A stretch of DNA of 64,000 nucleotides from Saksenaea vasiformis B4078 (lineage: Eukaryota > Mucoromycota > Mucoromycetes > Mucorales > Saksenaeaceae), in NCBI GenBank assembly GCA_000697055.1, contig JNDT01002392.1:124001-188000 (forward strand). The letters are read 5' to 3'. The notes beneath the pieces are model-generated. The model did not search any database and had not been told where the DNA came from. It was given only the letters and a program-made list of their open reading frames with translations. This document shows positions 6,478 through 60,731 of the stretch, one piece after another. The first letter of the stretch is position 1. Each line of letters starts with the position of its first letter. A program made the translations under genes and the position numbers.

Positions 6478-9058
6478 ATGTCTCATGTTTTCCTCGGAAT
6501 CAATGCTTGTTTCGTTTCGCGTGCGTATCGTGTGACTCAAAACTGCGCATTTCAACACGCCACCTCAAATCGACGTGAGGGTCCGATCAGACAACAGTTA
6601 AAGCGACCAACGCACAAGGTAAACCTCTTCCTCCATTCATTCGTTCCTTCTGACTTTATCCCTCTTTTTTGTTTTTCTCCTTCATGTCTGTCCATGCTTC
6701 AGTACCTGACACAGACCGCCGTTCCCTGTTGACCTTGCAGGATGTACTTACCGATCCTAAACTATTGCGGGAATTCGATAAGTACCTTCAGCAAACACAG
6801 TCGCATCGAAACCTACTTTTCGTGGAAGCCATGTCACAGCTACGACACGAAGAAGGCGGTCCAGTGAAGATAGAAACAATCCTTCACAGGTAACTCAGAT
6901 ATTTAGTCGCTTGTTCATCAATTAAAGAAAAATGTAAAAGAATATACAATACCTTTATTGAAGTTGGCGCATCGCTTGAGCTAAAGACAACCACATATGA
7001 GCAGGTTAAACGCGACTTCAATGCCCTCAGATGGGCTATTATTGATCGGCGTACTGCTGTGGGAATACTGAAAGATACAGAGACTGAAATCATGGATGTT
7101 CTTGTAAGTTCTTGGCCTTTTTCATTCTTGATAGCAAACCTGTTTTGATTAGAATAGAAAGCTCTCTGGATTCCTTCAAACTGTCTCAAAGCCCATTGAG
7201 TAAGTCCACGCAGATCATTTCCATAATTTCCTTATTCTGTTTTTGTCAGCTCCAATCCGCCATATTTGCAACGACAGCCAAAGAAAGACCAAAAACGTGT
7301 TGTGATCGTCGGTGGTGGTTTTACCGTATGGAGAAAAAAACACGCTTAAAAAAAAGCAAAAACCGACTGATCTTTCAATATAGGGTTTCACTGTTGCCTC
7401 CATTTTGGATTCAATGCCGCTCTTTCATGTGACACTAATAGATACAAAAGGTTAAGACAGCGACAAGCCGAAAGCTTGGTACTCATCTTCCCCGTGATTT
7501 TTAACAGACTCGTTCGAATACACACCCGGTATCGTTACTATGATTACCAATCCGGAAAAATCGTCTTCTCTCAGAGTACGCCATGAGGAATACGTTCGAA
7601 ACGGCAGAGTCATTATTGGCTATGCAGACAACATCGATGACGATGCTACATGTGTCCAAATTAATAATGAGAAGGTATGTCTCTTCACAAGTGTAACTGT
7701 CTTATGACTAAAATATAAATAAAACGCAGATCTATTTTGACTATTTGGTGATTGCTACCGGGAGCTCATACACATCGCAACTCAAATCAACGGACGTGTC
7801 CTCACTGTACCGGGTCTCTGGCCTCAAGCAAATTTATTCTGAGCTTGTGGAGGCTAAAAGAATATTAATTGTGGGCGCCGGATTGGTTGGGTGTGAGTTG
7901 GCTGCTGAGATCGCACAGCGCAGGTTCCCAGGGCCTTACCCAGAGAAACAAATTACCTTGGTCGAGCTCAGCTCCACTGTTATTCCTCGAAGCAATCCTC
8001 ATCAGCAGCAAAAAGCAGCTCAGTATCTGACAGAGTTAGGCGTTGAGATCATCTGCAATGAAAAAATCATGGACTTCAACGCGGAGCAAGATAACATTTA
8101 CCAAGGCACTAGCGGACGGATTTACAGCGGGCGTGACAGCAAAGTCTTCATGGCCACAGGGACCCGGCCCAACAGCGGATTATTATTGGCTAGCGCTGCC
8201 CTCGAATGCTGCCTCGATGACCGCAACCGGATCCGGGTCAAGCCGACACTTCAACTGGATCACTGGAAATACCGACATATCTTTGCCGGTGGAGACGTGA
8301 CCAACGTTATTGAAGAAAAGACAGGCTACTCTGCTACCATTGCTGGCGTTTGTATTGCCCGCAATATTTGTCGCCTCGAAAAAGGGAAAATGCCAGTAAA
8401 TCAAGGAACGAAAGGTTTGTTGCCTGCACCTATCAAACCTCTCCATGGTATTGCTGCCCAAGGCGGTATTGGAAAAAGTAAGAAACTTTAACTTTATCTT
8501 GCAGTAACATGACCTTTCAAATTTTTAGAGAAATTAAGTTTGTTTATGCGAAAGTTCTCGTTTTTGAACCCTCACTGGACAGCTCTCAAATACTTTGATG
8601 AACAACAATTTGTAAAATTGGTGCAAGACCGTACTAGAGCCTCTGCTGTCGTTGGCCGCCTTCCACGCAAGCTGGCTTTGCGACCCTCTCAGTCCACCGC
8701 TTCTCGGTCAAGCTTACCCTATTCTGTTCGTAGTAACGTAGGGTACGACATGAGTTGTGGAAGCCTAACAAGTCAGAACCCTCCTCTTTTCCAACGACGA
8801 CCATCTTATATCAGTCATCGTGCGGGAGAGTGTCGCTGCTCGACTTCCACAAATGATTATCGCTACATTGATGATGACGATGATGACGACGACGACGACG
8901 ACGCTACATCGGTTGATCAGTTCTCTTTAAGCTTGAAAAACGTTCGGCTCTTCGACGACGATAGTCTTGACAACGTGGCGAAATCGAGACGCTCTTCCTG
9001 TTCTTCCTTATCTAATAACTCGCTGAGCTCTGTTTCGCTTCCTCAGCTCCGTGTTTGA
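6478..9058 (+). CDS. RGS-like domain fused to FSP1/AIF-type NAD(P)H-FAD oxidoreductase
   Basis: Nine exons join in phase: 6478-6618, 6741-6889, 6941-7103, 7153-7199, 7250-7325, 7384-7450, 7508-7674, 7730-8477, 8529-9058, giving about 695 aa. Residues ~48-165 resemble an RGS domain (the LREFDKYL and LLFVEAM helices, then IYNTFIEVGA and a late KLSGFL). Residues ~183 onward form a pyridine-nucleotide disulfide oxidoreductase: FAD-binding GGGFTG (~188-193), NAD(P)H-binding GAGLVG (~319-324), an ATG motif, and a second FAD motif FAGGD. This arrangement is known from AIF/FSP1 (AIFM2) and NDH-2 relatives, which move electrons from NAD(P)H to quinones. The C-terminal ~170 aa are serine-rich with an 11-residue aspartate run and look disordered. 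No transmembrane segment is evident. The start ATG is the least certain part, and the RGS assignment is by eye. Two separate genes are possible, but exon phases support one product. Confidence 0.72.
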
Positions 9059-10192: not shown

Positions 10193-11021
10193 TTAGTCGT
10201 ATCTCTCTCGCCCATACTCGGTTTCATGCCCACGGCGACTACTACTTCTTCTATCTTCGTCTTCTCTTTCTCTGCGCCTGGCCTCTTTCCGTTTCTCCCT
10301 AACTGTCAGTCTCTGTGCCTCCATTAGATCAGTCTGAAGTGCTCGAGAAGGATGTTTGAGATGCATAAAGTTACAGAAGCCTCCTCGATTGCATTCGGCC
10401 AACTCGTTCTGCCTACAACATGCTTCTCTAAAATCGGTAACTGGCGATAATTCCGCGTACAGTGGACGACCTTTTAAAACGCAAAGGTCAGTATCTCTCC
10501 TCTTTCCACCTTTCTCTTCAATTATTTTACCTGCATAGAATCGATTATTCAGACTTTCTACAGCTTTTCCAGCATCTTCTTCATAACGGTACTGGCAATA
10601 TACGTTGCCAACCAAATGATCGCCGACATTGTCACAAACACACATTTCCTCTACCTCGCCGTACTTGGCGAGTTCCATAAACACATCTTCGTAAAATAGG
10701 TCAAAATCTTGCTGAAGTTGCTCCTCATTCATGTGGCAGATGGGGTTGTGCGATGGATTCTGGTACATATTGGCGATCAGAATCGTCTGTGAGAAGGTTG
10801 GTTTCACATGCTTTCTCGAACAACGTTCACCGTGGCGGCATGCACCAATCTGGGAATGCACTTGTTAGTTGATGCACAGCTAAATTATGTAACTAATCTA
10901 CCTTGAAATAGAAAGAGCAATTCACTCTGAAAAGTACATCAGTCTGCTGCCATTCATTGATATTTTCCTGTACTTACTTGTCCTTTTCGGTACCATAAAT
11001 ACTAGCAAGATATTCGGCCAT
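10193..11021 (-). CDS. U2AF1: U2AF small subunit (U2AF35), 3' splice-site AG recognition factor
   Basis: Exons in transcription order: 11021-10978, 10926-10902, 10849-10531, 10470-10193; product 221 aa. The start MAEYLASIYGTEKD is the conserved N-terminus of the family. Order: first CCCH zinc finger (CSFYFKIGACRHG then CSRKH), a UHM/RRM-like domain (~43-145) with the acidic FYEDVFMEL helix, a second CCCH finger (CCRQNELAECNRGGFCNFMH), then an Arg/Ser/Glu-rich tail. The protein binds the AG at intron 3' ends with U2AF65 and recruits the U2 snRNP in the nucleus. The 60-nt intron at 10471-10530 has a length divisible by three and no in-frame stop, so retention would add 20 residues inside the UHM domain. 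The gene is transcribed away from the CTR gene. Confidence 0.93.
10471..10530 (-). other. Frame-preserving 60-nt intron in U2AF35
   Basis: On the minus strand it begins GTAAAATAAT and ends TTTTAAAAG. Removing it restores the conserved junction YAG-RPLYAEL; keeping it inserts a Lys/Glu/Arg-rich 20-residue stretch without a stop codon. The junction match makes splicing the default reading. Confidence 0.8.
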
Positions 11022-15941: not shown

Positions 15942-17888
15942 ATGAACGAAAATACGAAGGCGATATTTCAGAACATCGTTTCACGTTATAGAGTAGATCC
16001 TCATAGTTATCTCCAACAACCGGACGAATCCCGTTTTCACTACTGGTTTCGGCGATTGGGTCACCTTAAACCCGTTGAGCTTATGTGGGGAGAGTCTGAA
16101 ATAGCCGGCCTACGAAGAGTCTTGACGGCAGCCCAATTAGTCTACGTCGGTATAGGCGGTATTATTGGCACGGGTATTTTCGTTTTGGCAGGACAGGCTG
16201 CCGCAAGAAACGCTGGTCCAGCCATAACTATTTCTTACGCGATAGCAGGTGCAGCTGCTGGTAAGTGGAGAGGACTTCGTAAATAGAAACTGAAGAAGCA
16301 GGCTAGGTTTTGCTGCTCTGAGCTATTCCGAAATGGCATCGATGATTCCGGTCTCCGGTTCTGCATACACGTATAGCTATGCAACGATGGGCGAAGCAAG
16401 TGTTTTATTTTTCTTGTTTCATGGGAGTGATTTACTTATGTCTCATCGCAGTTTGTTGCATGGATCATTGGCTGGGTTTTAATTTTAGAATACATGGTAG
16501 GCGCGGCGACAGGTAAAAGAATTACATGATACGCGATGAATAGCTTATGCGGTTGATGCAAGTGGCGGTCGGCTGGTCCGGCTACTTTGTTCAGATATTT
16601 AAAGAAGCTTTTAATGTCGATCTTGCGGATAGTTGGACACAGCCTACTGTCAACTGGACAGAAGTACCTGCAGCAATCACTTACCAACAAGGTCATTACT
16701 TCAATGTTCCCGGTTTTGTTATCGTGTTGATTGCGACTTTAATATTATACGTTGGGTAACGAACGAAAGAAGGGTAATAGGATTGAGCTATTCAACCAAC
16801 CGCTCTGTAGCATACGAGAGGCTGCGTGGGTGAATGCAGCGGTTGTACTGTTCAAGGTGACCGTTATCATTCTCTTCATCCTTTCATTATGTAGCTTCGT
16901 CGACAGATCCAATTATGAACCTTACATACCACCAAACCAAGGTGATTGGCATTTCTTTGGAGTCCCTGGAATATTCGCAGGCGCGTCCATCGTCTTCTTT
17001 AGTTATATCGGTTTTGATGCTGTCTCAACCGCGGCATTGGAAGCCAAAAATCCAAAACGTGATGTACCCATTGGCATTATTGGCAGCTTGACGATATGTA
17101 CCGTCCTCTACATAGCAGCTTGTACAATCATGACAGGGACTGCACCATACACTGAATTGGGGGTCGCTACACCTATCACCGCTGCAGTTGACGCTGTGCA
17201 AGCTAGGACACGCCGAAGCTGGCGATGGCTTAACATTGTCGTCTCTCTTGGTGCTCTCAGCGGCCTGACGTCCGTTATGCTGATCTTCCTACTAGCCCAA
17301 TCTCGTGTGTTCTATGCCATGGGACAGGATGGTCTGCTTCCAATTTGGCTTGGAAAGGTACATCACAGATTCAAGACGCCTTATCGGTCAACCATTCTCG
17401 TTGGCTCAATCACGGCTGTTCTTGCCGCCGTCATGCCTATCCAACTACTTGGGAATATGTCTTCCGTTGGCACTTTGCTCTGTTACTTTGTCGTTCACGC
17501 TGGCGTTCTCGTCTTACGTTTTACTCGACCCGATGTAGAACGTCGATTCTGCATTCCCGGAGGCAAATATTTCTCGCTTCTAATTCCTGTCTTTGGCATG
17601 TGTATTTCCATCCTTTTGATCGCTGTTGCTGAAATCACAACCATTTGGGTAAATCGGCTGTATGACGTTTCTACATTCTAACATGCGTTAAACCCGCTTG
17701 AAAAGCGCCTCTTTGTTTGGATGGGCATTGGTTCTTTCGTATATTTTGGCTACAGCATTCGCCATTCCAGGTTCCATCGTGATCCCATTGGTCGCTTCCA
17801 AGAGGCCAAAGCATGGAGACGTTCTACCTTTCATGTCAATGAATCTGAGCAAGAATTGCCCCAATGTAGTCAGGACTCTAGAGTCTAG
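15942..17888 (+). CDS. Cationic amino-acid transporter (APC superfamily, CAT type)
   Basis: Six exons (15942-16260, 16307-16395, 16452-16512, 16563-16755, 16811-17648, 17706-17888) encode about 560 aa. The first helix has the APC signature IGGIIGTGIFVLAG; later segments FAALSYSEMASMIPVSGSAYTY, VAVGWSGY, IREAAWVN, FFSYIGFDAVSTAALEAKNP and MGQDGLLP follow the order seen in CAT-type permeases. The last exon restores the conserved RLFVWMGIG...YFGYSIRHS end. It should import basic amino acids across the plasma membrane with about 12-14 helices. Exon 2 appears to use a GC donor (GAA|GCAAGT), because no GT donor keeps the frame. The ATG at 15942 fits the family length; an in-frame upstream ATG at 15840 is less likely. 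It is third in a same-strand row after the two copper genes, but I see no functional tie. Confidence 0.88.
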
Positions 17889-17972
17889 ATAGCAACAAGT
17901 TATGGTTTTTAGACACACGTTGACTGAAGGTTCATTTCTATTCAGTAAGTCTAGATGTCTAATGATAGTAGT

Positions 17973-19487
17973 CTAATAGTTACAATGACCAAACCAGCGA
18001 GGCACTGGTACAACTTCTCTCACATTTTCTAATCCGGTCAACCACAACATGAGGCGTTCAAAACCTATACCGTACCCACCGTGGGGAGCAGTGCCATACT
18101 TGCGGAGGTCCAGATACCATTGATATTCGTCGACTTTCATCGACGCGGCTTCCATTTTTTCCTTTAGGATGTCATAACGCTCTTCACGCATCGAACCGCC
18201 AACAAGTTCGCCTACACCAGGAATCAACAAATCAAAGCAGGAGACGGTTTTGCCATGATCGTCGTTAGCGCGCATATAAAATGGTTTTTGATGGGTAGGG
18301 TAGTCTGTCACAAAGACAGGTCGGCCACAGTATTCTGATGCCAGATATCGTTCATGTTCTGTCTGAAGGCTAGATCCCCAGGTCGTTGGAAATTCAAATT
18401 TCTTTTTGCTCTTCTGCAATACGTCAATAGCCTCGGTGTATGTCATACGCACAAACGGTTGGTCAATGCTTTTGTGTAACCTCTCCAGGAGGGTTGTGTC
18501 TGTCCATCGATTAAACAACTCTAAATCATCTGGACATTGTGATAATACGTGCTGTGTCGTTTGTTGTATGCTTGCTTCTGTTACATCCAATAATTGATCT
18601 AATTTATCGATAAAAGTCATTTCAGCTTCCAGCATCCAGAATTCAGCCAGATGCCGTGAGGTCAAGGATTCTTCTGCACGGAAAACAGGGCCAAAGGTAT
18701 ATACACGAGACATAGCTGACGCCAGCATTTCGGCGTGAAGTTGACCTGATACAGTCAAAAAAGCAGGTTTCTTGAAGAAGTCGGATGGTGCAGAAGCAGG
18801 TGCCACACGGAACACTTCTCCGGCACCTTCGCAATCGTGTGAGGTCAGGATAGGTGTGTGCACTTGGATAAATTCTTGACTCTGTGCTTTTCATTTCACT
18901 CAGTCAAGGTGGATATTATCATCATGATCCTACCGCAAAGAATTGCTGAAGTCCCTGAGTGGCAGCGTCGCGCATGCGGAGAACAGCGCTTCCAACGTTA
19001 CCACGCGCTCTGAGATGATTGATCGTGCGTAGGAATTCGAGAGTGTGACGTTTCTTCTGAAGGGGATATGTCTGCCGTTTCCTGTTAATTCGCTGTGTAC
19101 TGAAAGGGTCCATTTTATGACTCACGCTATCACATTCACCCAGGACACGAAGAGAGCGGACTTGTAATTCTTTACTCTGTTCTTTCCCTGGACTCGCCGT
19201 GACAGACCCTTGTAACTCGACGCATGCGCCAGTTGTTAATCTAAATGGAGGCTTGAGTCTTTATTTCTTAATGAATTCCGTTACTTTTCAGCGTCTTGCT
19301 CACTCAGAACAGCCTGAATGCCTTTCAGCGTTGTCCCGTCATTAACAACGGCAAAACTGACAGACTTCTGTTTGCGCACCGAACGTATCCAACCGCGTAG
19401 AACAACGTCTTTATTTTCTGTGGAAAGTACCGAACGTACAGACTGAGTTGGGAAGAGGGACTTGGTGGCAAGTCCACGCAGAGCCAT
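17973..19487 (-). CDS. Asparaginyl-tRNA synthetase, probably mitochondrial
   Basis: Exons 19487-19285, 19240-18934 and 18881-17973 encode 472 aa. The N-terminus (MALRGLATKSLFPTQSVRSV) is Arg/Ser-rich and acid-free, like a mitochondrial presequence. An OB-fold anticodon-binding domain follows (VVLRGWIRSVRKQK), then a class II catalytic core: IQVHTPILTSHDCEGAGEVF, motif 2 FRAEESLTSRHLAEFWMLEAE and motif 3 GGYGIGFERLMLWL. The HDCEGAGE stretch separates AsnRS from AspRS. It attaches asparagine to tRNA-Asn for organellar translation. The first intron is only 44 nt. The gene converges on the permease, with only 84 bases between stop codons. The frame stays open upstream of the chosen ATG, but that sequence does not look conserved. 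Confidence 0.92.
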
Positions 19488-21063
19488 GATAATTGATGAG
19501 AAAGGGGAAGATCTGTCAAAGCCACTGATACCGACGGCGGTTTTTGAGTTCCGTGTGCGCCGCTTGAAAATGCCCGTTTCAATTGAGAAAAATTGGGCTC
19601 GGGTAGTGTCTGGGGTTGGGAAGAAAAATTGATTCAAGCATTGGCTTCTACTTACGGTTCCGAAGTTTGGACATTGTTTAAAATGGGTTGGATCACATGC
19701 AGCTTCTAGGATGTCTGCGGAAAGTCTCGTTTTCAGTTTATCTGTATTCTTATGTCGATTCCTTCCCACAATGTGCCTTCAAATCCTATAGATACCTTAG
19801 AGACCATATGTTGCAGCTACACACCCGCCATAGCCTGCATGGCGATGGTCCTTCTTACGATGAAAAAATAGGTATTCTCCAAACATTTACAGCTCTTTTT
19901 ATTCGTAGCTAGCTATAATTCAGCCAGAGCTTTTTGCGTCAAGGAGGTTCTGCAATTTCTACAGAGTCAAACAGGATCTACTGACTACATGTTTATGCAA
20001 TGCCAACATTGATATTGATAAATCTTCGAATACATCGCATAGATTATTGTTTATATCGGTCAGAATAGACATGCAGCTTTTTTTTTTCCAATGGAGGATG
20101 GTCGTGTCTCATCGGAACGTCCGAAAGTTTAGTAAATGCTGCGTGTTCGCACATCACACGTCATTTCTTTCAAACGACTCCTTCTAAATAAAATGAATGC
20201 ATCCTTTTAGAAGCGCTTGTGCTATCGTACAGCGGCCATCATTTCAATCAATCATATTTCTTCGAACATCGGCGGCCGCCCAAACGTTGTATATTTATTC
20301 GTCATCTTTTGATTCGGAAAACAATCTCATATCTACAAAACTTCTGAACATTCGCCAATGTAATCAGAAATGAATCAAGTCAATTTACTGTAGCATCGAC
20401 CAGCAGGCTTGGAATCCCAGGTAGTCGTTTTGTTTCACCGTCATTGTACATCTTCTCGTAACGCTTTGCAATTCAAACACTTATGCCAGCAATAAAGGCT
20501 GTCTCCAGCCCTTTCTTAATAATTAGTTTCTCTGTCTACTGTGAAGGGTATAGTCTATGGTCCCCTCGGTTGCTCCTAATCACTTCTTTACATCTTAACG
20601 CAACGACGTAAGGGCTCTCTGCTAAACACTTCCGCTGTCATCTTCCACCAATGGATCTAACTCCACTAATGTAAGTGTTTTACAAAAGTATCTTCCATAT
20701 GTTCATTCTTCGCCGCTCCTCATGAGTAGCAGCATATGAATGGGATGCTTCTGCTCAGTCATCCAGCTGTTCATCTCCGACCATCTCGACGTTGAATAAA
20801 ATAGCATCAACGTATGCATTCGATGAGACCTCTCCGTTTTTCATATAGTGGTCAAGATTGTTGGTCACTTTCAGTGCGAAAGAGGCATTGACTGCATGAA
20901 AAATGTGAACCGGCACATCCACTTTCACAAGCGCGAAGTCACTTTAAACGTCACCGAATATTTATTTTTTTGGGACCTTGTTCCCCCCGAAAAAATTCCA
21001 AGACGCGGGCTGTCATAGAACCTTCCAACTACTTTTTTTGTATAATAGCTCTCTACGTATAGA
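19488..21063. other. Divergent intergenic region, AsnRS to Tom40
   Basis: About 1.6 kb of AT-rich sequence between divergently transcribed mitochondrial-protein genes. No coding frame with recognisable features and no RNA gene is visible. Short T-runs occur near 20080. Confidence 0.45.
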
Positions 21064-22307
21064 ATGTCTGCCCCCGAATCGGTCGCCAATCCGCGTATCT
21101 TCTCGCCTCTTTCGACTGCGTTTCCTATCAAAGAGCAAAAGCCCGCGGGATCACCTTGGAACCCTCTTCACTGGCCCAGTTGGTTTACTTTCCAGAAGAA
21201 CCGCCTGAACCTGCCTAACCCCGGAAAATTTGAGCGTCTCCATTTCGAAGTCAAGGGTAAAAGGGCAAAACAAAAAAAAAACAAGGCAACAGCAAACCAA
21301 CTTACATAATACGCTTAAACAGACACTTTTGTGAACAACTACTTGTTCGATGGCGCACAGGCAAACATTCTGAAAGAGCTGTCCGCCAACTTCCATGTGC
21401 AGCATCAGTTCTCTCTAGGCTCACAGGTCATGCCACCCATGTATAACTTCATGTCGGGATACATGACCGAAAGGGTAAAGTCGATCTGTTGTCTAGGACA
21501 ACGCGTTTATTTATCTACCTATTTCGTAGACAATGGCACAAGGTACTATGGATAACGATACCAACCTCCAAGCTGTTGTTAGACATATGTGGAATCAACA
21601 ATTGGCGATAAAGGTGGTTGCCCAGGTAAGGAAAACGAGAAAAGGAGAAATTGGCGATGGTTTTTTTTTTTCTTTTTTAAAAAAAAAAAAAAAAAAGATG
21701 ACACATATGCCTGGTCATTCAATGATGCAAATTGAGAGCGATTATACCGGTTCGGATTACTCGTTCAACGTCAAGGCAATGAACCCCAACCCAATGGAGT
21801 TCACCGGTATCTACATGGCTAATTACCTTCAATCGGTTACTTCTAAGCTCGCGGTTGGATCCGAAATTGTGTTGCAGCGCCCCACACCCGATATGGAGGA
21901 GACAGCCATGTCGTTGGTTGGAAAGTACACTGGTAATGACTTCATTGCGACCGCACAATTCCAGGGGTTGGGTGCGATCCAAGCCAGTTATTATCAACGC
22001 ATCAATGAAAAGGTCGATTTCGGTGTCGAATTGAATATGATGGTACAAGGTGGACGGAGAGAGGCTGTCGCCACTGTTGGTGGCAAGTTCGATTTCCGAC
22101 AAGCTACTTTCCGTGGTCAGATCGATACAACTGGTAGAGTATCTGCTGTCCTGGAAGAAAAGATGGCACCCGGCTTTGCCTTCTTGATTAGCGGCGATCT
22201 GGATCATATGAAGGTAAGCAGACAACGGTTTTGCAACAGGCAACCTAACTGACGATGATTCATAGGGCCAGAGCAAATTCGGTATTGGTATCACTTTGTC
22301 AGCTTAG
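21064..22307 (+). CDS. TOM40: Mitochondrial outer-membrane import channel Tom40
   Basis: Five exons (21064-21256, 21323-21474, 21530-21625, 21698-22213, 22266-22307) encode 332 aa. The product belongs to the porin_3 family and reads as Tom40 rather than VDAC: NPGKFERLHFEVK, then VNNYLFDGAQANILKELS, FHVQHQFSLGSQ, a long run of alternating beta strands, and the terminal strand GQSKFGIGITLSA. Tom40 is the beta-barrel pore of the TOM complex through which nearly all mitochondrial precursors pass. The protein has a proline-rich N-terminal extension and no cleavable signal, as expected. Intron 3 ends in a T-run followed by a 16-17 base A-run directly before the AG, an unusually purine-rich acceptor, but both the junction and the phase fit. 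Length is normal for fungal Tom40. Confidence 0.92.
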
Positions 22308-29516: not shown

Positions 29517-31090
29517 ATGACGGATAAAAAACCGTTCTGCCCCCGCCATTTACCTGAACTTGCCAAAACACGAGCCGATGAATTTCATCCGCTTGATACG
29601 TTGGAAAAGGTAAAAACGTCTTTACTCTATGATTGGATGTATATTAAACCCCGACAAAGGAGTTGGATAAGATTCCTCCGGCGGATCGACAGCCCATTGC
29701 TCACATTTGGTCGGTGTTTCGTTCTGCGCCTGCACCACAGCGGATGATGATTCTCCAAGGGTTGTTATCAACTTGTTGTAGTTCTCAGCTTTCATTTTTA
29801 TCCGACGCATTACCACCTTTATTACGAATCGATTTCACCGTGATACTACCGCCTGAATTATGTATCCGAATTTTCACTTATCTCGACGCCCAATCCCTTT
29901 GCGCCGCAGCTCAGGTCAGCCGACGGTGGAAAAGTTTCGCAGATGATGATATATTATGGCACCGAATGTGCGAGCAACATATCGACCGGAAATGTACTAA
30001 ATGTGGCTGGGGACTTCCCTTGCTTAACCGAAAACGCCGTTACGTCCGTGAGGAGACGGAAGTCCCTGAAGGGCCTGCTAAAAAGATCCGCCCGTGGAAA
30101 GATGTTTACAGTGAGCGGCTGGTAATCGAACGTAACTGGCGACGAAATACAGGTGTGCGAAGAGTGATTCTGCCATCACGGAAGGACCGGACAACGGTCC
30201 GATGTCTCCAGTTTTGCGACATCCAGAATATCCTGATTGGTGGCCTCACAGATGGAACCGTGCTCGTGAGTGATCTATGTGGCAAACACCAACGCTTTCT
30301 TCGTCATCAAGAGCACCCTCAACGAGCGATTGAGACGCTCCAGTTTGATGAGACAAAACTTGTGACAGGGTCGGCCGACCATACCTTAAAGATTTGGAAC
30401 TATCACACAGGAGAGTGTATTCGTACCCTCCGTGGTCATACAGCTGCTGTAACGCACTTACACTTTAACTCGAGAACGCTTGTCAGTGCCTCTGCCGATC
30501 GTACGCTCCGTGTCTGGAATTTCCAAGCGGCCGAGTGTTATGCCCTTTATGGTCACACAGATACTGTCAACCATGTCCGCCTACTGGCACCTGATCAAGC
30601 TGTTTCGTGCAGTGCGGATGCTTCTGTGCGTCTGTGGAACCTCACCCAACGTACCTGTGTTCGTGTATTCCAAGGTCATACGGATTCTGTCCAAGTAGCC
30701 GTTCCAAGTATGCCAGGATTTCTTCATCGCTTTGGCCAATCTGTCAGTACCGCCACACCTGTCGTCATTTCCGGGTCGCTTGATAAGACCCTCAGAGTAT
30801 GGGACCTCGACAATAACGAACAACCATGTCTCGAAACCTTGTTTGGCCACACACACGGTATCACTACCTTGGACTACGATAAACTACGACTCGTCTCAGG
30901 CTCTCGCGATGGTATTCTCAAACTATGGGATATCGAAAGAGGTACACCATTGCACACACTCCAAGCGCACAAAGCACCTGTGACAGCGGTTGCACTAAGT
31001 GACACCAAAATCATCAGCACTTCGGAAGATGCAGATATTGTCATTTGGGACTATGCAGCCTCCAGAAACACATCAAGGTTTCATGCCTGA
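29517..31090 (+). CDS. MET30: F-box/WD40 ubiquitin-ligase substrate receptor, Met30/SCON-2 type
   Basis: Two exons (29517-29609, 29660-31090) encode 507 aa. The N-terminus has the Met30/SCON-2 signature: KPFCPRHLPEL, then PPADRQPIAHIWSVF and LQGLLSTCC, which form the dimerisation region. The F-box follows (LPPELCIRIFTYLDAQSLCAAAQVSRRW), then the diagnostic WHRMCEQHIDRKCTKCGWGLPLL linker and about seven WD40 repeats ending with GSADHTLKIW-like blades. In yeast and Neurospora this protein is the receptor of an SCF ligase that switches off the sulfur-assimilation activator (Met4/CYS-3) when sulfur is ample, and it also acts in cadmium response and the cell cycle. Orthology rests on the N-terminal and linker motifs, not only on WD repeats. 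The next gene, Tim9, follows on the same strand and seems unrelated. Confidence 0.92.
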
Positions 31091-34926: not shown

Positions 34927-37900
34927 TCATGTCGCATGATGTCGCCTGGACTTCATACGTAAATGGAAGGACTTGTCAAAGACGCTAGTCCGTTTACTAT
35001 TCCTTCGCGGTCTAGCTTGTTGTTTCGGCGGTGACAAATGCGTAGTGTCTCCATTGTTTTCTTCTTCTTCTTCTTCTTCTTCTCCCTCTTCGTCGTCCTC
35101 AGGAACGCAGTCGTACAAACTGCTCCTGTCATCGCTTTGAATCGAACGTAGCATTTTCTGAGCGCGTATAGAGACGGAATCAGAGTGTGCTGAATGCATA
35201 CTGTGCATACTACGCATACTAGTCGATCGTTGGAGCCGTGTGCCTCGCTCACCACGTCGTCTTGTCTTTGTTTCGATACTGCCACTCCGTAATTTCTCCA
35301 TTAACCTATCCATGATCGCCTTCTCTTCATCTTGACCATTCGTAGTATCTAATAATTGTGTTACTACGTATAGCGAAAAAAAAAGTAACGAGGTAAGCAT
35401 ACATTGGCTTATCTCTACACCCTTGGTCTTGGGCGGCACGCCATTTCGTAACCTGTTACGACGTTCATGCTCGCGTAGGCGTTGCCGCTCCAAGCGTTCT
35501 CGTTTTTGTTTCGATTCTTTCAGATCAGACAAGCATTTCTACAAAACCAAAAAAAAAAAAAAATTAAGCTTTCTCTCTCAATCTCGCACCTTATCAATCA
35601 CTTACGTCCCAACTTGAAGTAAACCGTTTAAAAATACCAAAGAATTCGTCAGGTTCTATCTTGGCGGCATTTTCTCCATAGTAATGAACCACTTGTTGAT
35701 AGGAATTCTCCATTCTTTCTTTAAGTTCACAGATATTTTGGAACTTTTCGGATGCTTCTTCATGGAATGCTTTCATCACTTCCACAAACCGATCGTTTGG
35801 ATTGTCTACTGTTTCAAATGTCTCCAGCACTTGCCCAAGCCTGGTCAATCCTGAACGAAGTTCATGGAACTCGCTGCCCATTTCTGCTTTCGAAGCTAAT
35901 TCAAAACATGAGTTACCTTCTACTTTCTCTTATTCCCTTTACCCCTCGAAGCAGCGCCGCAGGGATCAAGCTCCTCCAAAAACTGGGCTGTCGATGGAAA
36001 ATTCTTTTCGACTGTATCAACCAGAAAATGCAGTAGCGTTGTTGAACTGGTCGCCCCTTTTGTATCAACAAGCTAACATAGTATACCTCATTAATTCTCA
36101 ACAGAACGAGATCAAAGCTCCTTATTTTTTTCTTTTTTCTTTTTTTTTTTTACCTTGTTGATACTATCTATTTTGACGCCAAATGCACCCCCACGGTACG
36201 TTTTGCCATTTAGAAAGTTGCCAATAGCTAAAATAAGCTATTATAAAACATAAACATAAACATGCAGGAGTCAAATGAAGCACTTACCTGAAGTAATTCT
36301 CTAAAATGGACCGCATCCTTCAAAGATATAGATGCTTCCAACACAGATGACATTTGCTGCATGTCCGTATGTGAACCACCGTTCTAACCTGCTTTCCTTT
36401 TTCCTTTTTTTCCCTTACCTTGAACACCTGGTTGTATTTGTCCCAAAAAGTTGCTTTAAACAGCATACATTCTATTCGTTCTTTAAAACGTTCAATCTTC
36501 ATAATCTAAGTAATAAACGCATGTCAACAAATGGTTTTATCCTGCAGGCTAAAGAAGACCAAATTTTACCTGGAGGCAAAACTGTTCGGGTGGTGACAGG
36601 TCCAACATTTCTTCAGGTGCTACAGTGCAGTAAGGTGCTAATTTGCCTGTTTCTTCCGCTGTTGGTAGATATTTTAACATGTTCTGTAACAACTGGTCAT
36701 CTTCAAAGTATGGATCCATACTGACAATCCGTGCACCAATATCATTAAAAGGTATCTTTTTAGTGACGGTCGTAATAAAGATATCTGTTTCATTCAATCA
36801 ACCCCTTCGTTATCTTCCTGTATTTTTGTACTTACGCAAGTTGCATGCTTTTTTTGAATCTAACACATGGATACGTTCTTTCGGTCGCTTCATCTTGAGC
36901 TGTACAGTTGGTTTGGCCGCAAAGGACTTTTCAATATCGTCAAACACACCAACATTAGCAAGCTTATACTCCAAAGAAGGTTCAAGTAGCTGTTCCTTGC
37001 CATCTTGAGTAGGCTTTTCTCCTGCGTGATGACTCCATACGGTCTTTTCAATATTAAGAAAGTTCATTTTCTCCCATTGAACATGCTTTAGCTTCTGTTT
37101 TGGTTGAAAGACAATGGGCTTAAAGCCTACAGCGGGAGCTACAGAAGGAGGCGCAGGCATAGGGCCCGTCAGGATCTGCGGGCCATTCTGCGTAGAAGCG
37201 TGAGGTGCAGCCGCCACGGATGGTGGAGGGGGCGGAGGGGGCGGTGCTGTGTTCATTGATGTCGAAGCACTGGATGGTAGTGGTGTTGGTGGGGCTCCGA
37301 ACGTCGTGGAAATAGGTGGAGGTGGAGGTGGAGGTGGAGGCGGTGGTGGTGGCCCACTTGCTATAGGCACTGATGGTGGAGGTGGCGGCGGCGGTGGTGG
37401 TGGCGGAGGGGGAGGTGGAGGGGGAGGTGGAGGTGGTGGTGGTGACAACTCATTTTCTGCGGGAATAGATGGTGGTGGTGGTGGTGGCGGTGGGGGCGGA
37501 GGAGGAGGAGAAGGAGAAGGAGAAGGAGTGGTAGAAGCAGGATGAGGAGGAGGGGAAGAAGCATCTGTTCCTGATGTTATGTCCTTGAGGGTGTCTTTCG
37601 TGTCATTGTCCTGTGAGGTAGGTAGGAAATCTAGGCCTTCGAAAGAAGTAGCCACTGGCGATTCCACAAGTGTGTCCAACTCTTCTACGTGGTTCGATGT
37701 TTTTGTGTGGCTGTCCTCATTTGATCTATCTTGTTCGTTGGCTGATGACAATGACCGTGCGCTGATATCATTTGTTCCCGTGGTTTTTTTGCTCGATATA
37801 CTACTCGCATCCGTTGTCGTGACAGATCGAGGCACATCATCTGTCGTTGATTGTCGTTCCTTTTTTATCGTAGTACCTGTCCGCTTTACAAAATTCGTCA

Positions 37901-40621
37901 TCTTCGAACCGATTTTATTACGCAAGGACTGGACAGATAAACCCTGCGACTGACTAGCAACGATAGGTTCGACGAGTGAATCGGTCTAAGAATGATATGT
38001 CAGTTTATATCCAACGGTATTTTTTTTTTTACCAACCGAGAAAGTGCGTTTCTGTGGGTCATAGTTGGCATTTTTCACGTTCCACATCTTGATGTCTGCT
38101 TCTGTTTTATGTCGCCGGCTACGAAGACTTCGATCTCTTTTTGGGCCTCCGTATTCCGTCAGTTCCCGAATTGTGTCGTATAAGCGTTTGATCTGTGCAT
38201 CCATCGCTTCGACCGTATTTTGGTGTTCTATTTCAAGATCATCTAGTCTTTGTTGAAGTACACCACGCGTTTGTTCCGCTACTCGTAAGCTACGCTCTAA
38301 AGACTCATTTTTCGCCCTCAGCTGTCCGACAAGTCCATCTATAGAAAATGACTTAGATTTGACTTGAGAACCCGCATGGCTTTACCTGCTTTCCGGTCCA
38401 CTTGTGCTCTCAGCTCAGCTTCACGCTCTTGTGCTCGCGCAGCCAATTCTTTCGCTTCTTCAGCATCTCTCAGCGCCTGTTCTAATTCATCCTCTTCCGC
38501 AAATCGCGAGATCAGATCACCCACAGTAATGCCGTAGATGCTCGAAAAATCGTTTGGTATTCCCTTTCTATCCAAGACGATCTGAGATACAAGTGATTCT
38601 ATTAACTGATAGTATCGGTTCCTAGATGTAAATCTGATCAGTTTTTCCCTCATGGATGGGTTGTTGGGACGAAAACCTTTTCTCGCTATCACATTGAATC
38701 AACAATAGATGTTGAAGAATGCTTTGTAAAAATTCGTATGCTCGCGTGCCATTGATGGATAACAAGATTGTATCGAGAATTTCTATAGGATCTCTGGTAT
38801 CGTTCAGCACTAAGCCTCCATAGAGTGATGCTGTGTCATTCTCCTCGAGTTCCCGAAAGAGATCGATCTTTCGATTAAGTATCTCGTTGTTTAACTGGCC
38901 TATCTTGTCGAGCACCTGCTGCAACCCACTTTGATAAAGTTGATTACGCAGTGCTACACGCACTTCCTGTTCTACAACCGTGTCTGGATCGACAAGGGCG
39001 TTGATTAGCAGCAGGTTGGCAAGCTAATTTTCACTATTGCGTTAGTCTAACAATTCTTTGCCATGTAGAAAAAAAAAACATTTTTTCTTTTTTACCGCGT
39101 ATTCCATTAATTGTGTATCGGGGTTGGATGCCATCCCAAATTGCTTGTAGTCCCTGCTCGCTCCAACAAACGAGCCCATTTTTCCTCTTCCATCTAACAC
39201 CTTTTCTAATGTCTTGAGCCAAGCGTCAAATCTGCCGTACTCTTCCTCGTACTCTTTTAGCAGCTCCATGCCTTGCAAGACCATGGAATGTCCAGACGGC
39301 TGTTCACAATAACACATGAATGTAAGCGCATCACAAGCAAGTCTTCGCGCAGGCACGTAGGGAGAGAGAAGTGATATGGCCATATTGTTGATACAATGCG
39401 ATCCACTCAAAGCTTCTTGGATGCCGTACTAAGAGATCCAAAAAAAAAAAGAAAAGTATTTTTAATCAATGCCACAGATACCCACACACACACGCGCGCG
39501 CTAACGCTAGGCGTATATTTACATACCACATTATTAAACATAGACCTTAGACATTTGATAATCTCTAGCTCTAGCAGACAATCCTGCTGGTTTCTAATAA
39601 GAATAATTTTAATACCACGACAACTTTTAACACATGAATGATATTTTCTAACCTGCCTGACTTTCGGTTGATACGACCAAGCTCGTTAGCAATAACTTGC
39701 ATACCGCGTTCATCTATGAATCGTCGAACCCAACTGCGACCATCCAGATGATATCAATCTTTGAATATCTCGCATTTCTCCCATCCCCCTTTTTTTTTTA
39801 TATTATTTTCTTTTACCTTAATGGCATTGTTCTCAACCGCACCGACAAGTCCGAAATGAGCTTTAATGTAATCGGCTTCTTTTCAGATCTCAGAAATGCA
39901 TTGATATAGTATTCTGGCGATAGTTTGTTGTCTTGTTCCTGTGCTTTCGTTGGGACCGGCTTCTTGTTGGCTGTCGATCCGAGTTTCGTCAGTTGGTTCT
40001 CGTTACACAGAATCCACCATTTTTTGTCGATCGGTAACTCTCGGAGACTTGCATCTCCCAGATTCAGATTAAGACGACCCTGAAACAAATCAGTTCGGGT
40101 CAGTCCATGGAACAAAAGTATAATAAATTATTATCATTCTTATTACTTACCGCAGCTTCAGCAAAGAGGCCTTCAACGTTCTCATCGGACGGCCGTTCGT
40201 TCATGCTATTTCCAAACATACCGGTCCATGGTCCACTGGATTCGCTGGTGCCGGTAAGAACGGAGCTAACCGAGTATAGGCTTTGTGGTGGCGAATTGAC
40301 TTATGTGTGTTTTTGTTCAGTTTACTACCATTTTTGTTTGTTGCTCGTTATTTTACCACTCGATCGCCATTCCTGTAATGAATCGGTTGTGGTGTTGGCT
40401 GAACTGTAGGTATTCGTATGTGTCGGACTGATCGGACTTGAGATCGTGATTCCCACAGGCGATCGTTCGGGGGAGTGTAATGATGGTGGAGGGCGTGGAC
40501 GGATCGCCACATGAAGCGAACCAGCTTTGGAAACCTTGGTCAGAGTACCGCCAGTACGTTTGTGTAGGCGAGACTTTGTCTTCACACGGCGGTCCGCACC
40601 AAGATTGGAGAGCAAACCCAT
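34927..40621 (-). CDS. Formin of the Bni1/SepA type (GBD-FH3, FH1, FH2, DAD)
   Basis: Eighteen exons join in phase to about 1535 aa: 40621-40357, 40299-40151, 40079-39817, 39733-39653, 39593-39527, 39428-39096, 39023-38677, 38621-38386, 38338-38037, 37985-36836, 36784-36570, 36505-36419, 36356-36288, 36237-36154, 36072-35943, 35895-35606, 35538-35421, 35348-34927. Order: Ser-rich N-terminus, GBD/FH3 autoinhibitory and Rho-binding region (DLSVRLRTMPLSWVRRFID, SILQHLLLI), coiled coil (EEDELEQALRDAEEAKE), a Ser/Thr linker, long proline runs of FH1 (~37220-37520), FH2 (LKHVQWEKMN, LQLILAIGNFLNG, TTLLHFLVDTVEKNFP), and a basic tail (LMEKLRSGS region) with a DAD-like segment and acidic stretch. Formins nucleate and elongate unbranched actin filaments with profilin at growing tips and septa, controlled by Rho GTPases. 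The 55-nt intron at 38622-38676 mimics a frameshift if missed. Confidence 0.93.
37218..37516 (-). repeat. Proline-codon repeat of the formin FH1 domain
   Basis: On the plus strand this is nearly pure (GGN)n, mostly GGTGGA and GGCGGT units, in several blocks separated by short linkers. On the coding strand it specifies runs of up to about 22 prolines that bind profilin-actin and SH3/WW partners. The purine strand has many G-tracts, so length variation and assembly error are likely here. Confidence 0.85.
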
Positions 40622-56422: not shown

Positions 56423-59246
56423 TTATACTTTCCACAGCACCAAATTCTTTTCTTTGTGATTACTGGCTGATGCTATTATCGTTTGTCCTCCTGTCCTGGT
56501 GCATCCAAAACCAATAACCGTCCCCGACGGTGTCCCTGCGCGCGTCGGTTGCGCTCCTGCCACACCGGGCTGCCACATGTATATCGCCTCGTACTCGCCG
56601 TACACCACCCGATGTTTGTCGCCATTGCCGACACTATTCACAAATGCGCATCCACAGATCTTGCTTTGTTGCGCCTGTTGTTCTTCAATCGCCTTCCAAT
56701 GCGATGTATCGTAGAGACGAATCCTGTCTTCTGATGAGGTCACCAACAAGTTGCCGTCTGCAGACCAGTCAATGCATGAGATGTATTTTTGATGTTCCGT
56801 ATTAATGGTTCGTACTGCAACATTATCCGTTGATATGTTGGGTCCGCTGCTCTTGGCCTTGCTAATGTCAACAATATACAGGTGGGTTCCAACAGCACAT
56901 GCAACAATATTGCTTAGTCGAGGATGGAAACGCAAAGGATTGGAAGAAGAGAAATTTCCCTTTGAAGACTATGACAAAATTTACGCATTAGACCTAATTC
57001 TTACCATCACATAGAACACCTCTTTCTTTTTTTTCTTTTCTTTTCCTTACCATTCGAATAGTCATTTCGCAGCTCGAAGAAGAAAGATTCCACATCTTAA
57101 ATTCGCCATCGAGATCCAAAGAACAAATAATATCAGATCGATTTGGCGCAAAATCGGCTCCCGTGACAATATCGGAACAACTAAATTTGGACAGCAAGTT
57201 GATCTTCCTGCCATCAGACATCGCCGACGCAACGTCCCAAATACGCACGCTTTTGTCATGGGAACAGGTAGCTACCAGGTTACGACTGTCTGGACTCCAT
57301 CGTGCGCAAGTGATTTGTGCAGTGTGGCCCTCAATTGTAAACCGTATCTTTTTCTCCTGGACGTTCCAAACAAGCGCCTTCCGGTCATTACCAGCACTGA
57401 CCAACCACTGACCATCGTTCGAGAAGCCAACGGTAGACACCTTGCCGGTATGTCCTTGGAGTTCTCCATAGAGTTGCAAAGATTGTCCGGTCACCGGAAT
57501 GGCTAACGAATTATCCACGCCGAAACCACCGCTCATGCTGGCCAGAAACCCTCCAGTAAAGTGCTCATCCCCCATCAGCATGCTTGGATCGTTATTATCG
57601 TCACCCGAGAGTAAGATTTCTCCATAACCTTCACTGTCGTTCATAAACTTCTCAAGATCAAAGGACATCCCAGGCCCAAACCCTGCGTTAGAAGACACTG
57701 CAACCGCATGGGCTGGCGATTGAGAGTTCTCATTCGTACCCGAAACAAGTCCAGTTGCACCCATATCTAATCCCACATTCCAAGACATACGCTGCTGCTG
57801 CTGTGATACTTGCTGTTGCGTCTGTTGCGTGTTCTGCTGTTGTGATGGCTGCTGTTGTTGCTGGGGTTGGGATTGGGGCTGCGGTACCTGTTTCTGTTGG
57901 TTGGCAGCATTACCACGGTTCATCTGAGGTGATGATTTCTCTGCTTTGACAGCATGGTCAAATTGCTGCTGCAGCTGCTGTGTACGTTGCTGTTGCTGTT
58001 GTTGCTGTTGTTGCTACTGTTGTTGCTGCTGCTGTGCAAAACGCTGTTGCATAGCCATGGTTGCTTCTTGAGGTCCAGACGTTGGAAGATTGTTAGGATT
58101 TAAAGGAGCTTGGCTCGTATTCATAACGTGCGGACTCCCTGCTGCAGGTAACTGGGGCGACTGGTTATTACCTGAAGGCCCATTGGTGCTAGCATCTCCT
58201 TCAGGATTAGGTTTCTGTCGCTTCTGTGGGTGTGTATCTGGTTGTCTAGCAGGGAATTGCTGCTGAGACATCATAACATGCATTGGCCGTCTTTGATACA
58301 TTGCTGCTGCTGCGGCTGCTGCATCTCGAGATTTATCGAGATCTTGTGGTGAGCCGCCAACCACCATTGGCATACCTGCATTAGGGCTAACTACGGGCAT
58401 TTGCCCTGCCTGTAATTGTTGCTGCTGCTGTTGAAATATCCTACGATGTTGAGCTTGGGCCATTCGCTGTTGTTGAGCCATAAGGAACTAGAAACAACGA
58501 CGTCAATGTCTCTCACATACGCCCAATGCTAAGGAAAGAATGTTACCTGTTGCTGACTCTGGGGCGGAAGACCAGAAACCATGGGTGTTTTGCCGAGTCT
58601 CGCAAGCATCATGTTCAGTGCAACTAAGAGGGGTCCAAGTTTCAGTTTTGCGTTATCGATATAAATAAGGATGGCTTACCGTCATTAGGAAATGGTCCAC
58701 CTGCAGCCATGTTGGGCGTATTAGGAGTTTGCATATTCGTAGACACCGGCATTTGCCCTGGTCCCGCCGCTCCTTGTGCACTTGCTACCGGGCCTGGTGT
58801 TCGTGGTTGTCCGTTCCCTTTAGAATAAGGATCAGCCGTATTCCTACGCTTCATCGGGACGCGGGCTGAATCCTCCATGCTACCTGACTGTCCTTGAGCA
58901 CCGGCTCGTGCCGTTGCATCTACTAATGTATTCTGGGCCATTGCCTGCGCAGCTTGCGGATGGGGCTGTTGCGGTTGCTGACGTGGAGTCATCTGGGAAG
59001 GGGTTTGCCCTTGTGGTTGCTGACGTTGTGGTTGCTGCTGCTGCTGCTGTTGTGGCTGCTGCTGTTGTGGCTGCTGCTGCTGTTGTTGCTGTGGTTGCTG
59101 CTGCTGATGTTGCTGTGGCTGCTGCTGTTGCTGCGGCTGTTGCTGTTGTTGCGGCTGCGGCTGTTGTTGCTGTGGTTGTTGCTGTTGTTGCGCTTGCTGC
59201 TGCTGTGCTTGCTGTTGCTGTTGTGCCTGCTGCTGCTGCTGTTGCT

Positions 59247-59277
<31 letters not shown>

Positions 59278-60731
59278 TTGTACCTGCTGCTGTTGTACCT
59301 GCTGCTGTTGTTGTTGCTGGTGCATTAATTGTTGGTTCATCGTAGCTTGCTGCTGCAACTGGATATACGAGGCATTACTGTTACCAACCATGTTGCTGGT
59401 AGACCAGGAACGTAAGAAGCGCTTTTCCCCTAAAAAGACCGACTTACGGATTGCGCATCATTTTGGACTGATTCAATTGCATCGCGTGTAGCCGTACTTG
59501 GTTATTTAAAGCCACCTTCGCATAACCGTAAGCCTACAATCTTGAAGCACAGAATTACCTTTTGTTCATGTGTCAATGTCAGCGGATTCTGACCACCAAG
59601 ACCAATGGCATTCATACAACTACTAACAATGGCGCTAGAAACGTGAACAGTCCCTGGTTGTCGTTGCATGTTAATCATCGGTTGCCCGTGCGCATTTAAT
59701 GGTACGCTCTGGGCTCCTGTCATTGGTGAATTCATCATGCCTTCCGCTGTCGGATGACCAATTGCATCTGTTCCCATTGCATTTGCTCGTTGCATTTGCT
59801 GCGGTGAATAGGATGGAGACGCGTTGTGTCTCCCTGCTATTTGTTGCTGAGGCAATGTAGCGGGCATGCTTTGTGGAGTATGTACAATGGTGTTCGTTGG
59901 CGGCGGCATTGCGCTGTGCGGCAGTGATGCCGTACTACTTGCAGGCGACGGACGATGGTCCCGTGACAACGGAGTTTGCTGTGAAGGCACACTTGGCATA
60001 TGTGGTGTCTGATTAGGATGTTGTGCCTGTGGATGTTGAGGATGATGCGCTGGATCGTGCTGAGCCGTATGGTGAATAGGATGGTTTTGCGGTTGATTTT
60101 GGGCAAGTCTCTGAGCTTCGGAAGCACGACGCTGTTGGAACTGATGTTGTTGTTGTGCCGCTTGCTGCATGGTATACGCTCGTTGCTGTTGCAATGATTC
60201 CTCTCTCCTCATTCGGAGGTATTCATGATACTGTCAGTGCGAGTCAAAACACAATCGGAAACTTTCCATCCTTTTACCTCATCGTGGAGAGCCGCCTCCT
60301 TGCTTACTTGAGCATCTCTTTGTTTTGCATGATACATGTCCCAAAAGACCCCCCACCAATCAGACAGAAAGCCAACGGATACGTCAACAGGAGGGGGTGC
60401 CTCGACTGGCACTCCCGCCTCCATAGCAAAGGAATGAGCTGCCTGGAGAAAATTATGTTTCTTGCAATAGTCGTAAATGTACAAGTGCAACATTTCGGTT
60501 GCCCTGACATCCGCAGGTGACCGTCCGGTGGGTCTAAAGAACCATTGTGTCAGTTGCCGTTCGTTACAGTTCAAAAGTGTTTGCAATTGTCTTCTTCTCT
60601 TAATCTTTTGAAGCCCTTGACGTATTTGCCACGCAAGCAGCCATGGTCAAAAGATGGAGCAATGCCATTGCTGGTAGATTCCGTGTTACATACCCATCCC
60701 AAGCGTTTCTCCTTATTTGCGACTGAGCCAT
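56423..60731 (-). CDS. LEUNIG-like LUFS/Q-rich/WD40 transcriptional corepressor
   Basis: Exons: 60731-60694, 60533-60278, 60230-59559, 59515-59448, 59395-58680, 58623-58547, 58487-57051, 56968-56423; together 1270 codons, all in phase. An N-terminal LUFS domain with LisH (ATEMLHLYIYDYCKKHNFLQAAHSF, then FLSDWWGVFWDMYHAK) is followed by ~700 residues rich in Gln, Pro and His, and by C-terminal WD40 repeats (GHTGKVSTVGFSNDGQWLVSAGND, ATCSHDKSVRIWDV, and ending EKNLVLWKV). This architecture is that of plant LEUNIG/LUH, nuclear corepressors that work with SSDP/LIM-binding partners and Mediator. Yeast Flo8 shares only the LUFS domain. An in-frame TAG at 58014-58016 lies in a Gln run before the WD40 part, and no intron removes it. 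It may be a base error, polymorphism, true truncation or readthrough. Confidence 0.85.
58014..58016 (-). other. In-frame TAG within the Gln tract of the LUFS/WD40 gene
   Basis: The minus strand reads CAA CAG TAG CAA CAA CAG in frame, with the Gln tract and coding frame continuing on both sides. A single C-to-T change in a CAG codon would create it. Other genes here end with TAG as a normal stop, so code reassignment is not supported. Confidence 0.8.
59030..59330 (-). repeat. Poly-Gln (CAG/CAA)n tract
   Basis: About 300 bases of mixed CAG and CAA codons, with scattered Pro (CCA/CCG), encoding a largely Gln-Pro segment of the corepressor. Interruption by mixed synonymous codons suggests a long-maintained Gln-rich region, though length polymorphism is likely. 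Confidence 0.85.

What the first reader, a model, noticed from the sequence alone, without database searches (positions are those of the whole stretch)
6478..9058. RGS-like domain spliced onto an FSP1/AIF-type oxidoreductase
Exon phases join an RGS-like N-terminal region to a complete two-dinucleotide oxidoreductase (GGGFTG and GAGLVG). I know of no described protein with this pair. FSP1-type enzymes protect membranes by reducing quinones, and RGS domains bind G-alpha; a fusion would place NAD(P)H-dependent redox chemistry under, or next to, heterotrimeric G-protein signalling.
Basis: partly seen in the sequence, partly recalled or inferred. Interest (0 to 1): 0.75.

Follow-up and report, generated by a model that had tools for sequence, protein, structure and literature searches.

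The report
Ancient RGS–quinone-reductase fusion protein
A fungal gene joins a G-protein-binding (RGS) domain to an enzyme resembling the membrane-protecting enzyme FSP1; the same joined protein occurs in many early fungi and their amoeba relatives, which hints at an old and seemingly unstudied link between G-protein signalling and redox chemistry.

Summary
The fusion is real, one gene, and old rather than a one-off. The coding gene is 6684-9058 (+), 8 exons, 667 aa. The N-terminal ~115 aa are an RGS domain by Pfam, profile and predicted fold (of the orthologue). The rest is an FAD/NAD(P)H oxidoreductase whose closest solved fold is FSP1. The genome holds two more full-length copies with matching introns, and an unfused FSP1-side gene. 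Proteins with both domains occur in 36 genera: 30 Mucorales, Umbelopsis, Jimgerdemannia, Piptocephalis, Blastocladiella, Fonticula and Nuclearia. A tree puts the fused enzymes in one clade apart from animal FSP1. Most members keep three of four RGS residues that touch G-alpha; this copy keeps one, and its RGS half diverges faster than its enzyme half. No family protein listed has FSP1's MG start. Many tails carry a PKA-type site. Best reading (inferred): an NAD(P)H:quinone reductase placed at membranes through RGS-G-alpha docking, weakened in this copy. My searches of open-licence papers found nothing on this pairing. Activity and G-alpha binding are untested.

The parts
6684..9058 (+). RGS-FSP1-like fusion gene, coding extent (ATG 6684, TGA 9056-9058; 667 aa)
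   Evidence: spliced model; start matched by eye to orthologue P0001
6684..6889 (+). exon 1 (RGS)
6941..7103 (+). exon 2 (RGS)
7153..7199 (+). exon 3 (end of RGS)
7250..7325 (+). exon 4 (linker, start of FAD motif)
7384..7450 (+). exon 5 (oxidoreductase)
7508..7674 (+). exon 6 (oxidoreductase)
7730..8477 (+). exon 7 (oxidoreductase; NAD(P)H motif)
8529..9058 (+). exon 8 (C-terminal part and disordered tail)
   Evidence: the tail of orthologue P0001 has pLDDT under 50
6735..7158 (+). RGS domain (residues 18-125, spans two introns)
   Evidence: PF00615 31.0 bits; family profile matches solved RGS domains; fold of the orthologue's domain
7296..8314 (+). two-dinucleotide oxidoreductase (Pyr_redox_2, residues 155-437, spans introns)
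   Evidence: FSP1 closest
7311..7386 (+). FAD-binding motif GGGFTG, interrupted by intron 7326-7383
7874..7891 (+). NAD(P)H-binding motif GAGLVG
8987..9001 (+). PKA-type motif RRSSC, 23 residues from the C-terminus
   Evidence: function inferred
   Evidence: no match; conserved RGS start lies downstream at 6684-6740

Best explanation
One gene encodes a three-part protein: an N-terminal RGS domain, an FSP1/NDH-2-fold FAD-NAD(P)H oxidoreductase, and a disordered tail. Shown here: the fusion, both folds (the orthologue's, by prediction), conservation across early fungi and nucleariids, and three paralogues in this genome. Inferred: the enzyme moves electrons from NAD(P)H to a membrane quinone, as FSP1 and NDH-2 do. 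The family lacks FSP1's N-myristoyl start, so the RGS domain may supply membrane placement by docking on lipid-anchored G-alpha. In this copy the docking face has lost two of the three contacts that most relatives keep, so G-alpha binding is probably weak or altered, and the paralogue on contig C530 is the likelier G-alpha-linked copy. A PKA-type tail site could return cAMP signals to the enzyme.
Against: No activity, binding or localisation data. D163 of RGS4 is kept in only 5 of 86. The window copy reads R, N, K, R at the four contact positions. Its RGS half is 74.8% identical to the orthologue against 91.2% for the enzyme half. Group-C pairs also diverge faster in RGS. Quinone as acceptor is taken from FSP1/NDH-2, not shown. 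The two archaeal relatives checked (P0130, P0132) have no MG start either, so the RGS domain need not have replaced one.
Confidence: 0.5

Rival explanations
1. The RGS domain is only a scaffold, as in axin or SNX RGS-homology domains: it dimerises the enzyme or binds another partner, and G-alpha is not involved.
Against: E87, N88 and N128 are kept in most members, and the positions I take as their equivalents (E66, N67, N103) are invariant in six proteins of Nuclearia, Fonticula, Blastocladiella and Piptocephalis (the profile alignment left N128 and D163 of Blastocladiella unaligned). In four of six group-B pairs RGS is about as conserved as the enzyme.
Confidence: 0.3
2. The flow of control runs the other way: the flavoenzyme senses NAD(P)H or quinone state and adjusts the RGS domain's GTPase-accelerating activity, so redox state tunes G-protein signalling.
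For: RGS contacts typical of GAP activity are kept in most members. The two domains are joined by a short linker (residues about 132-153).
Against: No evidence of allosteric contact; the structure model was not tested for inter-domain contacts. The window copy looks poor as a GAP.
Confidence: 0.15
3. Two neighbouring genes were wrongly joined by splicing in silico.
For: No RNA-seq for this locus.
Against: The same joined protein in 36 genera, a Nuclearia transcriptome unigene, and introns shared by three paralogues.
Confidence: 0.02

Closest known systems
FSP1 / AIFM2 (ferroptosis suppressor protein 1)
   Same: Closest solved structure by sequence and fold over the whole enzyme part; two dinucleotide motifs.
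   Different: Extra RGS domain and long tail; no MG start; separate clade from the animal FSP1 side, on which this genome also has an unfused protein (C85).
Type II NADH dehydrogenase (NDH-2 / Ndi1)
   Different: Lower match than FSP1; NDH-2 has no RGS domain (recalled).
Canonical RGS proteins (RGS4, RGS8, RGS16; fungal RGS)
   Same: RGS fold and profile; E87, N88 and N128 kept in most of the family.
   Different: D163 position not kept; fused to a flavoenzyme instead of DEP, 7TM or PX partners (partners recalled).
Unfused archaeal FAD-dependent oxidoreductases ('apoptosis-inducing factor 2' in metagenomes; Pacearchaeota, Nanoarchaeota)
   Same: Nearest unfused kin by identity, about 34-40% over about half the query.
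   Different: No RGS domain, about 345 aa.

Membership tests
RGS domain (PF00615) | Profile match over curated cut-off | tested here: met
   31.0 bits, cut-off 23.9
RGS domain (PF00615) | Helical RGS fold | tested here: met
RGS domain (PF00615) | G-alpha contact residues (RGS4 E87, N88, N128, D163; recalled numbering) | tested here: not met
   Window copy R, N, K, R; family mostly E, N, N, not D
RGS domain (PF00615) | GTPase-accelerating activity | not testable with these tools
   needs biochemistry
FSP1/AIFM2 | FAD- and NAD(P)H-binding two-dinucleotide fold | tested here: met
FSP1/AIFM2 | Lies in the FSP1 clade | tested here: not met
   Own clade 100/97, apart from the FSP1 side, 100/99 (human FSP1 itself was not a row)
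FSP1/AIFM2 | N-terminal MG for myristoylation | tested here: not met
   window protein begins MSV; 0 of 88 M-starting family proteins begin MG
FSP1/AIFM2 | NAD(P)H:CoQ reductase activity | not testable with these tools
   needs biochemistry
NDH-2 | NDH-2 as best fold match | tested here: inconclusive

The most novel reading that the evidence does not exclude
The family is a direct redox effector of heterotrimeric G proteins, older than the split of fungi from nucleariids. The RGS domain docks an NAD(P)H:quinone reductase onto active G-alpha at the membrane, taking the role of the myristoyl anchor of FSP1, and a PKA site in the tail closes a G-alpha/cAMP loop. Mucorales kept three versions that differ in RGS strength, one of them (the window copy) released from tight G-alpha control.
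Probability: 0.25. Interest if true: 0.85.

Novelty: new variant of a known kind. Interest (0 to 1): 0.6.

Why it matters
If it works as inferred, it is an old route from G-protein signalling straight to membrane redox chemistry and perhaps protection from lipid peroxidation. It is present in three copies in a genome that also holds 11 G-alpha loci by my grouping; Mucor circinelloides has twelve (PMC6936849, passages read). It makes a testable bridge between quinone pools and G-alpha/cAMP signalling in early fungi, and gives a functional handle on a family that databases mostly call hypothetical.

Tried and rejected
Rejected: chance or mis-joined genes. Rejected: simple FSP1 orthology. The rooting between the FSP1 side, the archaeal-type group and the fused clade is not resolved, as the root was set on the FSP1 side, so 'sister to archaea' is not claimed. 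The archaeal-type group also holds unnamed metagenomic rows and one EukProt protein (P0104). One member of the fused clade, P0097 (444 aa, metagenomic), has no RGS part. P0100 looked unfused in the first tree but its start holds part of an RGS domain (weak, 18.7 bits). Blastocladiella P0102 has an RGS part by the family profile (26.1 bits), but no PF00615 in its precomputed domains. The first tree trimmed several unfused rows at the wrong motif; the second (50 rows, some rows dropped) corrects this. Counts of the residue after the second Rossmann strand and of the GxE position mix the two motifs and are not used. The comparison of C530 uses Apophysomyces sp. BC1021 (P0018), another species than P0001 and truncated, so it is no strict control for the window copy. 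Two of six group-B pairs have a less conserved RGS (P0013/P0032: 61.9 against 74.9%; P0004/P0007: 84.7 against 89.1%). Group labels of rows not in the trees are mine by resemblance. Absence in Dikarya, chytrids, Mortierella and Glomeromycotina is only 'no fused protein listed', whose candidates were capped and of whose matches the best 120 were shown. NCBIfam: none over its cut-off among the 25 families shown of 41. Foldseek with the RGS model gave no match under E 0.001 (best 1.4e-3). I could not map FSP1's C-terminal residues onto the family.

Paper searches: searches returned nothing; one search gave PMC12716839 (passages read; no such fusion in them); one search gave PMC6936849 (passages read) and PMC9861637 (listing only); one search listed 15 of 16 papers, ferroptosis and related topics (listing only); one search gave PMC7907439 (passages read; unrelated). 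Only open-licence papers are held.

Full report
What is there. The region holds a spliced gene on the + strand. The annotated orthologue from Apophysomyces ossiformis (P0001, 79% identical over the whole query) begins MSVAPDTQSTEQLTLQD. The window offers MSVHASVPDTDRRSLLTLQD from ATG 6684, the first ATG after an in-frame stop, so exon 1 is 6684-6889. The protein is 667 aa.

It is a family, not a chimera. Searches listed 175 distinct proteins (the best 120 of 204, 270 and 711 matches). With the window and its two paralogues, 90 of 178 carry the family RGS profile at E up to 1e-3. By my reading of the listings these come from 36 genera: 30 of Mucorales (order recalled for most), plus Umbelopsis, Jimgerdemannia (Endogonales), Piptocephalis (Zoopagomycota), Blastocladiella (Blastocladiomycota), Fonticula (Rotosphaerida) and Nuclearia. 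The Nuclearia entry is, by its name, a transcriptome unigene, with both domains in one frame. This genome has two more full-length copies, on contigs C530 and C67 (706 aa each). Six of the window's seven introns lie at the same alignment column and phase in both; the seventh is shared with C530 and lies one residue off in C67.

History. A tree of 50 enzyme domains puts the fused proteins in one clade (bootstrap/SH-aLRT 100/97), apart from an archaeal-type group (98/97, which also holds unnamed metagenomic rows and one EukProt protein) and from the side holding animal FSP1-type proteins, an oomycete protein and this genome's own unfused C85 gene (100/99). One protein in the fused clade, P0097, has no RGS part. 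Within the clade, nucleariids, Blastocladiella, Piptocephalis and Mucoromycotina separate as expected for vertical descent from before the split of fungi and nucleariids, though the deepest forks are open. Mucorales carry three groups: A (the window), B (C530) and C (C67). The root was set on the FSP1 side, so the closeness to archaeal proteins is one of identity (about 34-40%), not a proven sisterhood.

The RGS face. With RGS4 numbering recalled from memory, one search gives E87 in 70 of 81 sequences, N88 in 65 of 81, N128 in 66 of 88 and D163 in 5 of 86 (gaps left out). In an alignment of six proteins of Nuclearia, Fonticula, Blastocladiella and Piptocephalis the equivalents of E87, N88 and N128 are invariant; the profile alignment left N128 and D163 of Blastocladiella unaligned. 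Read by eye, three conventional RGS domains of this genome (L001-L003) have all four residues; three others (L005, L006, L008) have E, N, N but not D, L004 lacks them and L007 is partial. The window copy has R, N, K and R; its orthologue P0001 has Q, N and K. Between the two the RGS half is 74.8% identical (86 of 115) and the enzyme half 91.2% (280 of 307). In one search the two halves are close in the three group-A pairs of other genera (for example 89.0 and 91.6% in Mucor) and in four of six group-B pairs; in two group-B pairs and in group C the RGS half is lower. So the family RGS looks fit for G-alpha in most members, and this copy looks weakened.

Other signs. Of 88 family proteins that begin with M, none begins MG, while the three animal FSP1-type proteins checked do; annotated starts may be wrong in some. 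Of 62 tails of 60 aa or more, 30 hold RRx[ST] against 9.5 expected from shuffling each tail. Of the rows placed in the trees and scored, 10 of 12 in groups A and B have the site 23-36 residues from the end (RRASL in Mucor and Rhizopus, RRSSC here), and 0 of 8 in group C have one. Related sequences count together, so this is no probability. The genome has 11 G-alpha loci by my grouping (one weak fragment left out); Mucor circinelloides has twelve (PMC6936849, passages read).

How it probably works. Shown: one gene, two folded domains, old conservation, paralogues. Inferred from FSP1 and NDH-2: electrons pass from NAD(P)H through FAD to a membrane quinone. Inferred from the kept contacts: RGS docks the enzyme on G-alpha at a membrane. 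Inferred from the tail: PKA may regulate it. In this copy G-alpha docking is probably weak. The rivals are a pure scaffold role and redox control of GAP activity.

Novelty. None of the searches brought up a paper on this pair; these cover open-licence papers only, and of the papers listed I read passages of three. Databases hold the proteins, mostly as hypothetical, a few named for one domain. I rate it a new variant of a known kind, with interest 0.6.

Noticed in passing
window 8870-8902: Run of 11 Asp codons (GAT/GAC) in the disordered tail, shorter in the A. ossiformis orthologue; likely length-variable.
   Followed up: partly
L024, L025 (contigs C530, C67): Two full-length paralogues of the fusion; C530 keeps E87, N88 and N128 and has a RRSSV PKA-type site.
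   Followed up: yes
L026 (contig C85): Unfused FSP1-side oxidoreductase in the same genome.
   Followed up: partly
G000 C651:274148-275454: A G-alpha gene on the same contig, about 140 kb from the fusion gene.
   Followed up: no
P0140 (Fonticula alba): Fusion with a several-hundred-residue low-complexity insert within the RGS domain.
   Followed up: no
window 10193-10864 (-): CCCH zinc finger plus RRM protein, read as U2AF35-like (name recalled).
   Followed up: partly
window 16743-22252: Exons of an amino-acid permease, a class II (D/K/N) tRNA synthetase and a eukaryotic porin.
   Followed up: partly
window 29648-31090 (+): F-box plus WD40 protein.
   Followed up: partly
window 36810-37985 (-): Polyproline stretch followed by a weak FH2 match (26.0 bits, cut-off 34.8), formin-like.
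   Followed up: partly
window 56994-60233 (-): Long polyglutamine exons and WD40 repeats, reminiscent of LUFS/LEUNIG-type co-repressors (recalled).
   Followed up: no
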